Source: Fusobacterium sp. (GTDB lineage Bacteria; Fusobacteriota; Fusobacteriia; Fusobacteriales; Fusobacteriaceae). From it: a stretch of 39,325 nt of DNA. This document shows, in pieces, positions 29,790 through 35,333 of the stretch. Position numbers and translations under genes: made by a program. The notes beneath the pieces were generated by a model. That model saw nothing but the letters and a program-made list of their open reading frames with translations. It did not search any database and had not been told where the DNA came from. Location: NCBI RefSeq assembly GCF_029258315.1, contig NZ_JARHZE010000059.1:1-39325 (forward strand). The letters are read 5' to 3'. Numbering within the stretch: the stretch's first letter is position 1; each line of letters starts with the position of its first letter.

Positions 29790-29904
29790 AACCGCAAAAA
29801 CAACTTTGAATCTACACCCGTAAAAATACCTTAGTGCTGCTTCCTTCCAGACCTGACACGGTTCGATACTGTTACGCCATAAACCTCCATTGTTCTCACG
29901 GCTT
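29790..29904 (-). ncRNA. ffs: Signal recognition particle RNA, small (4.5S-like) type
   Basis: Minus strand contains the GTCAGGTCTGGAAGGAAGCAGC apical core. The 5' CCGTGAGAACAA pairs (with G-U) to the 3' TTGTTTTTGCGG, closing the long hairpin. Confidence 0.95.
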
Positions 29905-29944: not shown

Positions 29945-30382
29945 CTATTTTTTATCAGTTACCTTTTGTTTTTGTGTAGCTAATTCTATTCTTTTTATCG
30001 CTATATCCCTAGCTTTTAAATACTGATCTTGGCTTATACATTGTTGTGCTTCATATTGAGCTCTTAATTTATCTTTTAATATTTCTGCTTCAATCTCTCC
30101 AATTTCATCTATCAACTTATAAACCTTATTCCAATTTTTATCAACACCAGCTAAAATATATTTATTTATTTCTAACTCTTTGCTTTTTTTATCAAGCAAA
30201 AGATATTCACACTTATTTCTTGAAGTGTTTATTATCTCCTTAGCTTTTAAAATTTTTTCCTTTGTAACCCCTACTTTGGCAAAATCCTCTTCTGTTATCA
30301 TTCCTAAATTTTCGCTATTAGTATCTCCAAAAGACAATGTTCCAAAAAGGACTGTAAATATTAGTATATACTTCTTCAACAT
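29945..30382 (-). CDS. Small exported alpha-helical protein (possibly Spy/CpxP-like) in ECF sigma operon
   Basis: Signal peptide MLKKYILIFTVLFGTLSFG followed by a charged helical sequence; adjacent to the sigma factor and membrane protein. Family assignment tentative. Confidence 0.6.
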   Translation of the reverse strand: MLKKYILIFTVLFGTLSFGDTNSENLGMITEEDFAKVGVTKEKILKAKEIINTSRNKCEYLLLDKKSKELEINKYILAGVDKNWNKVYKLIDEIGEIEAEILKDKLRAQYEAQQCISQDQYLKARDIAIKRIELATQKQKVTDKK

Positions 30383-30397
30383 CTCATTTTGCCTCCA

Positions 30398-30721
30398 CTA
30401 AGATTGCATATTTAAAACAAAATATTCATCTGTTTTCATTTCTGATTTTTTCTCATCTGAATTTACATTAAAGTAATTATCTATTGACTCATTAAATTCA
30501 TTACGATTTGATAAGTCCATTGTTTTTGTCATAGTATACTCTGATATATTATTATCTAAAACTGACGAGTTACTACTTGGAATAATATTATATAAAGAAC
30601 CTGCAAATATCCCAATAACAAATACAGACATCGTCAAATAAGATTTCTTCTTATTTTTTTCTTTTTCTTCTTTTAATAGAGTCTTATATACATTCAGTCT
30701 TACTCTTTCTTTTGGTGACAT
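30398..30721 (-). CDS. Single-TM membrane protein, putative anti-sigma factor
   Basis: TM segment SYLTMSVFVIGIFAGSLYNIIP; ATG overlaps the sigma factor stop (TAATG), indicating translational coupling. Confidence 0.6.
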   Translation of the reverse strand: MSPKERVRLNVYKTLLKEEKEKNKKKSYLTMSVFVIGIFAGSLYNIIPSSNSSVLDNNISEYTMTKTMDLSNRNEFNESIDNYFNVNSDEKKSEMKTDEYFVLNMQS

Positions 30722-31173
30722 TACTTATCCTCCTCCAAACTTTTTAACGCCTTATAATAAATTGACTTAATTGTCGATATATTCCGTCCTTTTAAATCAG
30801 ATATCTCACGTAATTTATATCCGTATACATCTTTTAATAATAGTATTTCTCTTTCCTCTTTGCTCAACTTTTTCAGATTTTCTTGAATAATCATAGGACT
30901 ATTCAAGTCACTATTGTCTTCAATATTTAGAATTTCTTCATTTAATTCTAGATCTATTTTTTTCTTCCTAAAGAAGTCATAAGTTTTATTGATAGCAATT
31001 CTATATATCCATGTATATATCTTACTATCAGCTCTAAACTTTGACAGATTTTTATAAACACTCACGAACACCTCTTGAGCGATATCTTCTGCATCTTCTG
31101 AATTCTTAACTGAGCTTAGGATTTTATAATAAATACGATCGAAATATTCATCATATATTTGATCAAAATCCAT
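30721..31173 (-). CDS. RNA polymerase ECF-type sigma factor (RpoE-like)
   Basis: DFDQIYDEYFDRIYYKILSSVKNSEDAEDIAQEVFVSVYKNLSKFR...YTWIYRIAINKTYDFFRKKK; sigma4 REILLLKDVYGYKLREISDLKGRNISTIKSIYYKALKSLEE. Start at 31173 behind an AGGGGGAGAG RBS. Confidence 0.9.
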   Translation of the reverse strand: MDFDQIYDEYFDRIYYKILSSVKNSEDAEDIAQEVFVSVYKNLSKFRADSKIYTWIYRIAINKTYDFFRKKKIDLELNEEILNIEDNSDLNSPMIIQENLKKLSKEEREILLLKDVYGYKLREISDLKGRNISTIKSIYYKALKSLEEDK

Positions 31174-31199
31174 CTCTCTCCCCCTGCTATTCTTTTTTA

Positions 31200-31640
31200 T
31201 TAGTTCCAACCAGCACCAACCTCAAAATTAACTCTGCACTTTCTTCCTTCTATATTTATTACTTTATCTTCGTTCATTATAACTTTTCTAACTGTTTCAT
31301 AATCATTTAAAGGACTACTTGAACCATGATCTTCATCATCAAAGGAATTTCTTGAAAATAGTAAAGAGATTGTATACTTTTCCTCCTCGATATATCTAAA
31401 CCAATACCTACCTTCTTTTACATAATATTTGACTCCTGGTCTTATTCTCACATTATCTAAGTATACCTGTCTTACATATTGAGGATCATAATTAACTTGA
31501 AAAATATATCTTCCTTTTGTATCTTCTAAAGATATTTCATCATTATAATCTTTAGGTAAAAGAGCATCCAAACCTTTACAGCCTGTAAAAATAGTTGCTA
31601 CAAACATAAAAATCATTAAAATTCCTATTTTTATCTTCAT
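31200..31640 (-). CDS. Putative lipoprotein, first gene of ECF sigma operon
   Basis: Lipobox-like signal MKIKIGILMIFMFVATIFTGCKG; TTAGGAGAT RBS. Confidence 0.75.
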   Translation of the reverse strand: MKIKIGILMIFMFVATIFTGCKGLDALLPKDYNDEISLEDTKGRYIFQVNYDPQYVRQVYLDNVRIRPGVKYYVKEGRYWFRYIEEEKYTISLLFSRNSFDDEDHGSSSPLNDYETVRKVIMNEDKVINIEGRKCRVNFEVGAGWN

Positions 31641-31705: not shown

Positions 31706-32749
31706 TTATAAAATTTCCTTTAACATTTTTCCTAGTTCTTCCAAGATTTCCTCTTCCTTAACTTTTTTTACAACCTCTCCTTTTTTAAATAAAAGTCCCT
31801 CACCTTTTCCACCAGCTACTCCAATATCAGCCTCTTTAGCTTCACCAGGTCCATTAACAACACAACCCATTACAGCTATTTTTATATTTTTTTCTATATT
31901 TCCAAATTCTTTCTCTACTTTTTTAGCAAGTCCTATTAAATCTATCTGTGTTCTTCCACAAGTTGGACAAGATACAATCTCAACTCCCTCTCTCAAACCT
32001 AAAACTTTTAAAATCTCTTTAGCAACTTTTATTTCTTCAACAGGATTTTCTGTTAGAGAAACTCTTATGGTATTTCCTATTCCATCAACCAACAAACTTC
32101 CTATTCCTATTGAAGACTTTACTGTCCCTTGAAACTCTGTTCCAGCCTCTGTTACTCCTAAATGTAATGGATAATCAACCAATTCAGATATTTTTCTATA
32201 AGCATCCACCATCATTTTAACATTACTAGATTTTAAAGATATAACTATATTGTGAAAATCATATTTTTCTAATAGTCTAACATGGTACATTGCACTTTCT
32301 ACCATTCCATCTGCTGTCACTTTTCCATATTTTTCTAAAATCTTTTTCTCAACAGAACCACTATTTACCCCTATTCTTATAGGAATATTTAATTCTTTTG
32401 CCTTTTCGACAACCATTTTTACTTTTTCATCATCACCAATATTTCCTGGATTAATTCTTAATTTATCAATTCCATTTTCCATAGCTTTTAAAGCTAAACG
32501 ATAATCAAAATGTATGTCTGCTACTAATGGTATATTTATTTTTTCTTTTATAAATTTTATAGCTTCAGCTGCTTTTTCTGTATTAACAGTTACTCTTACT
32601 AACTGACAACCTGCTTTTTCCAGTTCTTTTATTTGCTCAACAGTTTTTTCAATATCTTCTGTGGGAGTATTTGTCATCGATTGAATAATTACAGGATTAT
32701 CTCCTCCCATAAAAAGATTTCCTATTTTTATTTCTCTTGTTTTTTTCAT
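31706..32749 (-). CDS. ispG: 4-hydroxy-3-methylbut-2-enyl diphosphate synthase
   Basis: [75 protein letters not shown]. Confidence 0.96.
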
Positions 32750-32815: not shown

Positions 32816-32833
32816 AAATTTGTATTTTTTCTT

Positions 32834-32948
32834 TTGACACCTTTTTGACACATTATGTTATTATAATTACTCTATCATAATATTTTCCCCATTAGTTATA
32901 CTAATGAGAAAGAAGCTATTCCCCCAGAAAATAGCTTCTTTTTTTTTA
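32834..32948 (+). ncRNA. Predicted small RNA gene, copy 1 (promoter elements 32834-32873, putative transcript ~32875-32948)
   Basis: TTGACA(32834)-N5-TTGACA(32845)-N11-TATAAT(32862). Hairpin CATTAG-ttata-CTAATG (32890-32906). Terminator AAGAAGCTATT-CCCCCAGAA-AATAGCTTCTT-T8 (32910-32948). No ORF track entry covers it. Confidence 0.75.
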
Positions 32949-32978
32949 TTTATTTTTATCATTTTTTTATTTTTTCTT

Positions 32979-33092
32979 ATGACATCATTTTGACACATTG
33001 TGTTATTATAATTATTCTATCATAATATTTTCCCCATTAGTTATACTAATGAGAAAGAAGCTATTCCCCCAGAAAATAGCTTCTTTTTTTAT
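32979..33092 (+). ncRNA. Predicted small RNA gene, copy 2 (transcribed part identical to copy 1)
   Basis: ATGACA(32979)-N5-TTGACA(32990)-N11-TATAAT(33007). Same hairpin (33035-33051) and CCCCC-loop terminator (33055-33085 plus T-tract). 145-bp offset from copy 1. Confidence 0.75.
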
Positions 33093-33108
33093 TTGTTTTT
33101 ATTTTTTA

Positions 33109-33213
33109 GTTATGTCACTGTTTTGACATAACAAATTAGTACAATCATAGAGTCGTTGGACTTTCCTATTGATTGAAACTGATAAAAAGGACTATTTTTG
33201 TAGTTCTTTTTAT
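33109..33213 (+). ncRNA. Predicted small RNA gene, divergent unit 3
   Basis: TTGACA(33123)-N11-TACAAT(33140). Small hairpin AGTC-gttg-GACT (33151-33162). Terminator AAAAAGGACTA-tttttg-TAGTTCTTTTT (33184-33211). Confidence 0.5.
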
Positions 33214-33232
33214 TTTTTTAAATATTTTTGTT

Positions 33233-33350
33233 TTGACACAATTTTGACACATTTCATCACTATAATTAATCTATCATAATATTTCCCCATTAATCATATA
33301 GATTATATGGATTAAAGAAGCTATCCCCCCAAAAATAGCTTCTTTTTTTA
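33233..33350 (+). ncRNA. Predicted small RNA gene, copy 4
   Basis: TTGACA(33233)-N5-TTGACA(33244)-N11-TATAAT(33261). Remodelled hairpin TTAATCATATA-gat-TATATGGATTAA. Terminator AAGAAGCTAT-CCCCCCAAAA-ATAGCTTCTT-T-tract. Confidence 0.7.
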
Positions 33351-33372: not shown

Positions 33373-33406
33373 AAAAAGATCAGATAACACCTGATCTTTT
33401 TTTATT
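33373..33406. terminator. Bidirectional terminator
   Basis: AAAAAGATCAG-ataacac-CTGATCTTTTTTT between the sRNA cluster and the convergent DUF523 gene. Confidence 0.8.
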
Positions 33407-33943: not shown

Positions 33944-34972
33944 TTATAGATCTAATTTTAAATCCCCATCTTTTATATATCCTTTTTTTCTCATCAAAGT
34001 AGAAAAGAATAAAGTTAGTATTGCTGGTAATATTATATGAAGCAATAATATTGTTAAATATAATTTATTTCCCCCTCTTCCAATCTCCTCCATAGCTCCT
34101 ATTGTAGCTATCTGTCCTACTAATCCACAAGTTCCCATTCCTGCACCTATTGGACTATTCTCCATTTTAAAAATTATAGTTGCCACTGGACCTAATATAG
34201 CTGAAGATAAAATTGATGGTATCCATATTTTCCAATTTTTTATAATATTTCCCATCTGTAACATTGATGTTCCTAATCCTTGAGCTGCAAGTCCACCAAA
34301 TCCATTCTCTTTAAAACTCATAACTGCAAACCCCACCATTTGACAACAACATCCAACAGTAGCTGCCCCTGCTGCTATACCACTAAGTCCAAGCATCATA
34401 CAAATAGCTGCACTACTTATCGGTAAAGTTAAAGCTATTCCCATAAGAACTGAAACACAAATTCCCATATAGAATGGTTGTAATTCTGTTGTTACCATTA
34501 TTATTTTACCAAATGATGACATAATTTTTGCTATTGATGGTCCCACCATCTCTGCCGCTAACATCCCTGTTAATATTGTGAAAATTGGAGTTAATATTAT
34601 ATCTATCTTAGTTTCTTTTGAAATAAGTTTACCTAACTCAACTCCTATTATTGTTCCAAAGAATGCTCCAACAGGTCCTCCAACTTCATTTCCAAAAGCC
34701 CCTGTAATAGTTGAAGCAAATAAAACCAATCCTGGAGCTTTAAGTCCATATGCAATTGATACTCCTATAGCTGGTCCTGTCATTCTCATAGCTAATGGTG
34801 ATACAACTTCTACTAAATATGGAATATCAAATTTACTTCCAATAGTTTTTAAAATTGTTCCTACTAATAAAGATGAAAAAAGTCCCATAGCCATATTACT
34901 CATTGCCACTATTAAATATCTCTCTGTACTTATGATAACATCTTTTTTTCTTAAAAAATCTCTTAAACTCAT
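33944..34972 (-). CDS. PTS EIIC-like membrane permease (PTS_EIIC_2 family)
   Basis: Multi-TM; FASTITGAFGNEVGGPVGAFFGTIIGVELGKLISKETKIDIILTP, SPIGAGMGTCGLVGQIATI. Start placed at 34972 (MSLRDFLRKKD). Confidence 0.8.
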   Translation of the reverse strand: MSLRDFLRKKDVIISTERYLIVAMSNMAMGLFSSLLVGTILKTIGSKFDIPYLVEVVSPLAMRMTGPAIGVSIAYGLKAPGLVLFASTITGAFGNEVGGPVGAFFGTIIGVELGKLISKETKIDIILTPIFTILTGMLAAEMVGPSIAKIMSSFGKIIMVTTELQPFYMGICVSVLMGIALTLPISSAAICMMLGLSGIAAGAATVGCCCQMVGFAVMSFKENGFGGLAAQGLGTSMLQMGNIIKNWKIWIPSILSSAILGPVATIIFKMENSPIGAGMGTCGLVGQIATIGAMEEIGRGGNKLYLTILLLHIILPAILTLFFSTLMRKKGYIKDGDLKLDL

Positions 34973-35094
34973 TTCTCTACCCCTTTTTTCTGTCTTGTCA
35001 TATGTAATATGCATTGCTATTATATAGTTTTTGATAAATTTTTGCAAACTTTTTTTATTATTTAAACTTTTCTGGCTTAATATCTGTCTTAAAG

Positions 35095-35118
35095 AAAAAG
35101 GAGATATCCTTTTTATTA
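35095..35118 (+). promoter_or_regulatory. Terminator-like hairpin in the leader of the glycine-zipper gene
   Basis: AAAAAGGA-gata-TCCTTTTT perfect stem-loop ~20 nt before ATG 35139. Confidence 0.4.
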
Positions 35119-35138
35119 TGAATTTTGGGAGGTAATTT

Positions 35139-35333
35139 ATGAAAAAATTAGTTATCGCTTGTATTCTTGCAAGTATCGCTTTTGTTGGTTGCACTAGAAC
35201 TGAAAAACATATTGCTACTGGAGCAGCAGTTGGAGCCGTAGCAGGACATATTATAGGAGGAGATACAGGAACTATTGTTGGAGCTGGTGTTGGAGCTGGA
35301 GCTGGAGCAATAATAGCTGATAAAAATAGATAA
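35139..35333 (+). CDS. Small glycine-zipper lipoprotein
   Basis: Lipobox signal KKLVIACILASIAFVGC and glycine zipper GAAVGAVAGHIIGGDTGTIVGAGVGAGAGAIIAD; GGGAGG RBS. Confidence 0.85.
   Translation: MKKLVIACILASIAFVGCTRTEKHIATGAAVGAVAGHIIGGDTGTIVGAGVGAGAGAIIADKNR

What the first reader, a model, noticed from the sequence alone, without database searches (positions are those of the whole stretch)
32830..33350. Tandem array of four predicted small RNA genes, three sharing C-rich loops
Seen in sequence: four consecutive plus-strand units, each with promoter-like elements, a short non-coding body and a terminator hairpin. Copies 1 and 2 are identical throughout the putative transcript. Copy 4 keeps the terminator stem AAGAAGCTAT/ATAGCTTCTT and the C-run but has a rebuilt first hairpin, with a longer stem and one bulged G. 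The unpaired UUUUCCCC (UUUCCCC in copy 4) and the terminator loop CCCCCAGAA/CCCCCCAAAA are the preserved parts, while stem sequences change. That is what selection on C-rich seeds would look like. Inference: a multicopy sRNA family, not CRISPR, IS or tRNA. I do not know whether it has been described.
Basis: partly seen in the sequence, partly recalled or inferred. Interest (0 to 1): 0.88.

Follow-up and report, generated by a model that had tools for sequence, protein, structure and literature searches.

The report
Tandem stress-controlled small RNA gene array
A fusobacterium carries a row of near-duplicate small regulatory RNA genes, apparently switched on together by one membrane-stress sensor system through a shared DNA box; the same RNAs, box and sensor recur in three related species, so a complete and testable control circuit can be read from sequence, though its targets are unknown.

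Summary
Four plus-strand units (32834-33350) each have a promoter, a body of about 70 nt and a terminator; three share one RNA. Comparative evidence makes this a real sRNA family: 15 copies in 4 of 98 Fusobacteriota genomes, all one genus, in syntenic arrays beside ispG plus single copies. The 16-nt 5' end AUCAUAAUAUUUUCCC is near-invariant (1.89 bits/position against 0.84 for the six bases before it). The terminator C-loop and first hairpin are not generally kept, so 'C-rich loops' is only half right.

The main new point is the promoter. All units carry TTGACA-N5-TTGACA-N11-TATAAT (or near), an OmpR-family direct-repeat box replacing the normal -35. In the four array genomes 23 of 24 close box sites precede this sRNA (15), a second unrelated sRNA (4) or one autoregulated OmpR-type two-component operon (4). 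Best reading: a multicopy sRNA arm of an envelope-stress two-component system, whose C-run base-pairs with G-rich ribosome-binding sites, working like Listeria LhrC/LisRK and streptococcal csRNA/CiaRH. It is not in Rfam. Expression, regulator and targets are untested.

The parts
32834..32850 (+). Regulator box 1, TTGACA-N5-TTGACA
   Evidence: 0 mismatches to the pattern; same box in arrays of G001, G003, G006
32862..32867 (+). -10 element TATAAT of unit 1, 11 nt after the box
   Evidence: hexamer mean 1.94 bits over 15 copies
32874..32947 (+). sRNA copy 1 (start inferred from conservation and -10 spacing; end in the T-run)
   Evidence: z -6.7; model hit 85.4 bits, E 4e-12
32883..32890 (+). 5' UUUUCCCC, putative seed, predicted unpaired except the last C
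   Evidence: CCC at +14..+16 in 15 of 15 copies, U-run nearly so
32907..32943 (+). Intrinsic terminator hairpin of copy 1 with CCCCC loop (32921-32929)
   Evidence: stem 91.5% paired over 14 distinct sequences against 45-66% for slid versions
32979..32995 (+). Regulator box 2, ATGACA-N5-TTGACA
   Evidence: 1 mismatch
33019..33092 (+). sRNA copy 2, identical to copy 1 up to the T-run
33112..33128 (+). Regulator box 3, ATGTCA-N5-TTGACA; also an 8-bp inverted repeat TTATGTCA/TGACATAA
   Evidence: 3 mismatches to the full pattern; sequence
33146..33220 (+). Unit 3: unrelated short RNA with terminator hairpin (about 33181-33214)
   Evidence: z -4.3; no full-length relative in seven genomes, only terminator-like partial hits
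33233..33249 (+). Regulator box 4, TTGACA-N5-TTGACA
   Evidence: 0 mismatches
33273..33350 (+). sRNA copy 4, diverged first hairpin, CCCCCC terminator loop
   Evidence: z -5.2; model hit 73.5 bits; same type as G006 unit b
31706..32749 (-). ispG, conserved neighbour of the array (87-92% identical in G001, G003, G006)
33944..35194 (-). PTS IIC-like membrane protein, conserved neighbour on the other side (75-82%)

Best explanation
Units 1, 2 and 4 are copies of one trans-acting sRNA; unit 3 is probably another sRNA under the same control. Under envelope stress a sensor kinase phosphorylates its OmpR-family response regulator (operon on contig C78 of the same genome, called TCS-A here). The regulator binds the two TTGACA half-sites, one helical turn apart, and recruits RNA polymerase to TATAAT 11 bp downstream, firing all units at once along with its own operon and a second sRNA gene near proB. 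The RNAs end at their terminators (about 72-78 nt). Their unpaired 5' UUUUCCC, in some copies helped by the C-rich terminator loop, pairs with G-rich ribosome-binding sites and blocks translation, probably of envelope proteins. Several copies give fast, high dosage. Shown by sequence comparison: the family, its conserved 5' end, the box, and its link to TCS-A. Inferred: transcription, regulator binding, stress signal, seed pairing and targets.
For: Family: 15 copies in G000, G001, G003, G006 (E 4e-12 to 5e-6), none at E<=1e-4 in 94 other Fusobacteriota. Synteny beside ispG. Invariant 5' end: +1..+16 mean 1.89 bits against 0.84 for -6..-1 and 0.47 between box and -10. Terminator pairing kept. 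Box: with <=2 mismatches, 24 sites in the four array genomes, 23 before this sRNA (15), the second sRNA (4) or the TCS-A operon (4); reversed-pattern control at <=3 mismatches 1, 0, 0, 1. A box lies upstream of TCS-A in all seven genomes of the genus: G000, G001, G003 clear; G006 across a contig break and G005 weak; in G002 and G004 it precedes a small secreted protein gene ahead of the regulator. TCS-A is an OmpR/PhoB-type regulator with a HAMP-HisKA-HATPase kinase. Elsewhere in the family the box precedes small secreted proteins and, by eye, TolC-like and other outer-membrane proteins. Precedent for C-stretch seeds on envelope mRNAs in Fusobacterium: FoxI, FoxJ (PMC11005410).
Against: No expression data. 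A paralogous system (TCS-B, contig C96) has a related but distinguishable box (TTGACATATTGAGG...) next to its own small secreted protein, so the regulator could be TCS-B or both. The Spy/CpxP likeness of those proteins is by eye: Pfam gives only a sub-threshold Metal_resist match for one. Candidate targets with GGGGAAAA before a start codon exist but were not shown to be shared by all four genomes. The family is narrow: four genomes.
Confidence: 0.66

Rival explanations
1. The same sRNA array, but driven by the paralogous TCS-B regulator (contig C96) or by both systems.
For: TCS-B has a related recognition helix (DRVVDTLVKRIRKK) and a box-like site before its own small secreted protein gene in G000, G005, G006, G024, G026; in G048 a TCS-B-type regulator gene itself has the box.
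Against: TCS-B sites next to its own small protein carry GAGG/CAGG between the half-sites, absent from the array boxes; array boxes match TCS-A's own promoters; G001 and G003, which have arrays, show no box near their TCS-B-like operon.
Confidence: 0.18
2. The RNAs act mainly by binding or titrating a protein, or as sponges for other RNAs, rather than by pairing with ribosome-binding sites.
For: Many copies and repeated C-runs are compatible with titration; the LhrC authors discuss the parallel with Rsm/Csr RNAs (PMC4132741).
Against: The second C-run is not conserved; the conserved part is one 5' single-stranded segment, the usual place of a seed.
Confidence: 0.12
3. Duplicated promoter-terminator debris without a function in trans, or leaders of lost genes.
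For: Units lie in one intergenic region and two are near-identical, as after a recent duplication.
Against: Near-invariant 16-nt 5' end in 15 copies in four genomes beside fast-changing spacers; single copies in other places; the second, unrelated sRNA under the same box is also kept in four genomes.
Confidence: 0.04

Closest known systems
LhrC1-5 of Listeria monocytogenes (LisRK-dependent multicopy sRNA; PMC4132741)
   Same: Several near-identical sRNA copies; all copies need one two-component system; induced by cell envelope stress (here inferred); C-rich motif in a single-stranded stretch and in the terminator loop, pairing with a G-rich ribosome-binding site.
   Different: No sequence relation found; LhrC has CUCCC also in loop A and the authors cite no LisR consensus, whereas here the box is plain and the terminator-loop C-run is often lost. 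Phylum differs.
csRNAs of streptococci (CiaRH-dependent, RF02379; PMC3091779)
   Same: sRNA genes under direct-repeat N5 boxes of an OmpR-family regulator (TTTAAG-N5-TTTAAG) placed about 10 bp before -10; several copies per genome; unpaired sequence complementary to ribosome-binding sites.
   Different: Half-site TTGACA, not TTTAAG; csRNA model reaches only 30.4 of 57 bits and not on a unit; csRNAs carry the unpaired stretch between two hairpins, here it is the 5' end.
FoxI and FoxJ of Fusobacterium nucleatum (sigma-E-dependent; PMC11005410)
   Same: Fusobacterial sRNAs with a C-stretch seed linked to envelope stress; FoxI's C-stretch lies in a long linear region.
   Different: FoxI/FoxJ use sigma-E promoters; FoxJ is about 156 nt and precedes ylmH near 4.5S RNA. 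Here TATAAT with an OmpR-family box, about 72-78 nt, in an array beside ispG.
OmrA/OmrB of enterobacteria (OmpR-dependent; own knowledge)
   Same: Adjacent sRNA genes with a shared 5' end used as seed, activated by an OmpR-family regulator, acting on outer-membrane proteins.
   Different: Hfq-dependent and unrelated in sequence; the FoxJ paper states that F. nucleatum lacks Hfq and ProQ.

Membership tests
Any Rfam 15 family | Covariance-model score at or above the gathering score | tested here: not met
   No hit in the array at gathering threshold; permissive hits all far below it
csRNA (RF02379) / CiaRH regulon | TTTAAG-N5-TTTAAG box and csRNA model match | tested here: not met
   Box is TTGACA-N5-TTGACA; 30.4 bits against 57
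LhrC family | Sequence/structure match to LhrC | tested here: not met
   No LhrC match in the Rfam scans; host is in Fusobacteriota. Functional resemblance stands
FoxI/FoxJ | sigma-E promoter; FoxJ synteny der-foxJ-ylmH-4.5S RNA | tested here: not met
   Promoters have TATAAT; the 4.5S RNA in the window (29803-29888) is not beside a der-ylmH pair
FoxI/FoxJ | Sequence identity to published F. nucleatum sRNAs | not testable with these tools
   The sRNA catalogue papers are not held
Two-component-controlled multicopy sRNA (functional class) | Shared regulator box at all copies and at the regulator's own promoter | tested here: met
   23 of 24 sites in four genomes (with 42, 43, 48, 69)
Two-component-controlled multicopy sRNA (functional class) | Loss of expression in a regulator mutant | not testable with these tools
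   Needs RNA work
C-rich-seed translation repressor | Conserved unpaired C-run | tested here: met
   5' CCC at +14..+16 in 15 of 15 copies; predicted unpaired in units 1 and 2
C-rich-seed translation repressor | Conserved complementary target sites | tested here: inconclusive
   GGGGAAAA-N2-10-ATG sites found, no target shown to be shared by all four genomes

The most novel reading that the evidence does not exclude
In this fusobacterial lineage an envelope-stress two-component system has a direct regulon that is almost wholly noncoding: of 24 close binding sites in four genomes, 19 drive sRNA-like genes of at least two unrelated families (unit 3 would be a third), and the regulator's own leader contains a terminator that may release yet another RNA, while relatives in the same family use the same box for small secreted proteins and outer-membrane proteins instead.
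Probability: 0.45. Interest if true: 0.68.

Novelty: new member of a known kind. Interest (0 to 1): 0.57.

Why it matters
Two-component-controlled multicopy sRNAs with C-rich seeds are known from Firmicutes; a sequence-unrelated case in Fusobacteriota, which in F. nucleatum lack Hfq and ProQ, would be an independent, convergent instance. It gives a candidate regulator, a defined box, a seed and closely related genomes that lack the array, so the circuit can be tested directly. It would also add a second envelope-stress noncoding arm in fusobacteria beside the sigma-E sRNAs FoxI and FoxJ.

Tried and rejected
Named genomes: a pattern scan and a neighbour-protein scan (best 65% identity) found no member of this genus, so the species name and presence in F. 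nucleatum stay open. The two F. nucleatum sRNA papers are not held.

Off-target avoidance: GGGGAAAA-N2-10-ATG is rarer in array genomes (11, 15, 24, 24) than in array-less ones (48, 30, 25), and GGAGAAAA is not, but unrelated GGGGTTAA is also rarer, so this is not specific to the seed and is one phylogenetic contrast; rejected as evidence.

Targets: inspected sites before real starts include a LolC/E-like permease (G000 C100), an AbgT-like transporter (G001, G003), a BatA-like protein (G001, G003) and a putative outer-membrane protein (G001) (names by eye). None was shown in all four genomes, so none is claimed.

Covariation in the first hairpin: the hairpin is absent in several copies and RNAalifold predicts only the terminator, so it is not a defining part. 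Small ORFs in the array: longest 43 codons, none over a plausible ribosome site. The known F. nucleatum regulators CarR (17-bp motif) and ModR (no motif in the passages read) were considered; neither could be tied to this box.

Full report
Observation. The four units are there as described. Each has a direct-repeat element, a -10 hexamer and a short body ending in a hairpin with a T-run. All four fold far better than shuffled sequence, though much of that is the terminator. Units 1 and 2 are identical through the transcript; unit 4 is diverged; unit 3 is a different RNA. The bulged base in unit 4's first stem is a U. No tRNA, no Rfam family and no convincing ORF lies in the array.

A real family. 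A covariance model built from 15 units finds those 15 units in four genomes and nothing else at E<=1e-4 in 98 Fusobacteriota genomes. The hits are not independent of the model, since it was built from them; the independent evidence is that most copies were first found through the promoter box, not through the RNA. Arrays of three sit beside ispG in G001, G003 and G006, with the same PTS-like gene on the other side, and single copies lie elsewhere in G000, G001 and G003. Over 15 copies the first 16 nt of the predicted RNA average 1.89 bits per position, against 0.84 for the six bases just before and 0.47 for the box to -10 spacer. This contrast over a few bases is what a constrained RNA 5' end looks like. 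The terminator stem is kept with compensating changes (91.5% paired against 45-66% for slid versions), although that also follows from being a terminator. The first hairpin and the terminator C-loop vary or are lost.

The promoter. The TTGACA copies are not a -35: they sit 11 and 22 bp before TATAAT and 11 bp from each other, as in OmpR/PhoB-family direct-repeat boxes that replace the -35 (established knowledge; CiaR is an example). With one mismatch allowed, the pattern finds sites in 20 of 61 family genomes, and its reversed control finds none in any. With two mismatches in the four array genomes there are 24 sites: 15 before this sRNA, four before a second short RNA (TTTGTTCATAARACCTTTCCTTTTAAA..., conserved in all four genomes), four before the TCS-A operon, and one unexplained (G001 C6:60866).

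The regulator. TCS-A is an OmpR-type regulator followed by a HAMP-HisKA-HATPase kinase. A box lies upstream of its operon in all seven genomes of the genus: clear in G000, G001 and G003; in G006 on two contig ends that share 15 bases; weak in G005; in G002 and G004 before a small secreted protein that precedes the regulator gene. The recognition helix is conserved in all seven (AVDSQIKRLRKK, with Ile for Val in G002 and Ile for Leu in G005). A paralogous system, TCS-B, has its own small secreted protein and a related box marked by GAGG or CAGG between the half-sites. The array boxes lack this and resemble TCS-A promoters, so TCS-A is preferred, with TCS-B as the main rival. In other genera the box stands before small secreted proteins, proteins that look TolC-like by eye, and a regulator gene. 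That gene content suggests an envelope-stress system of the CpxRA kind; the Spy/CpxP likeness is by eye and not supported by Pfam.

How it most likely works. Stress, regulator phosphorylation, binding to the box, simultaneous transcription of all units, and translation block by the 5' UUUUCCC pairing with G-rich ribosome-binding sites. The promoter steps rest on comparative sequence evidence; the pairing step rests on the conserved unpaired C-run and on precedent: LhrC (PMC4132741), csRNAs (PMC3091779), FoxI/FoxJ (PMC11005410). Targets are unresolved, and an apparent avoidance signal did not survive its control.

Place among known things. It works like LhrC/LisRK and csRNA/CiaRH but fails the sequence tests of both. 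It is not FoxI/FoxJ by promoter and context. It is absent from Rfam 15. Whether the published F. nucleatum catalogue holds a relative could not be checked. Hence: a new member of a known kind, of good but not exceptional interest.

Noticed in passing
window 29945-31209 (-): ECF sigma factor (Pfam Sigma70_r2/r4) followed by a likely anti-sigma-like protein and a small secreted protein, about 1.7 kb from the array and next to 4.5S RNA; the sigma gene is 92-95% identical and syntenic in G001, G003, G006. Probably the fusobacterial rpoE operon.
   Followed up: partly
L010 (G000 C35:21228), L084, L077, L087: Second sRNA-like gene under the same box, 5' end TTTGTTCATAARACCTTTCCTTTTAAA then a terminator, downstream of a DUF2207-like gene (name by eye), conserved in four genomes.
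   Followed up: partly
L028 (G005 C8:34467): A perfect box in an array-less genome is followed by another short RNA-like unit with CCCTACCC and a strong terminator.
   Followed up: no
L011, L085, L092, L096 (TCS-A leaders): Between the box promoter and the regulator gene lies a terminator-like hairpin with a T-run, followed by what looks like a second promoter; may be an attenuator or release another small RNA.
   Followed up: no
G001 C6:60866-60899: Only close box site (2 mismatches) in the array genomes not assigned to an sRNA or the TCS-A operon.
   Followed up: no
L246-L251 (G030-G035), L253, L258 (G047), L254 (G048): The box precedes small secreted proteins, some Met/His-rich, in other genera: candidates for a fusobacterial periplasmic chaperone or metal-stress family not covered by Pfam.
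   Followed up: partly
window 33378-33404: Terminator-like inverted repeat AAAAAGATCAG/CTGATCTTTTTTT between the array and the DUF523-like gene, probably a terminator.
   Followed up: no
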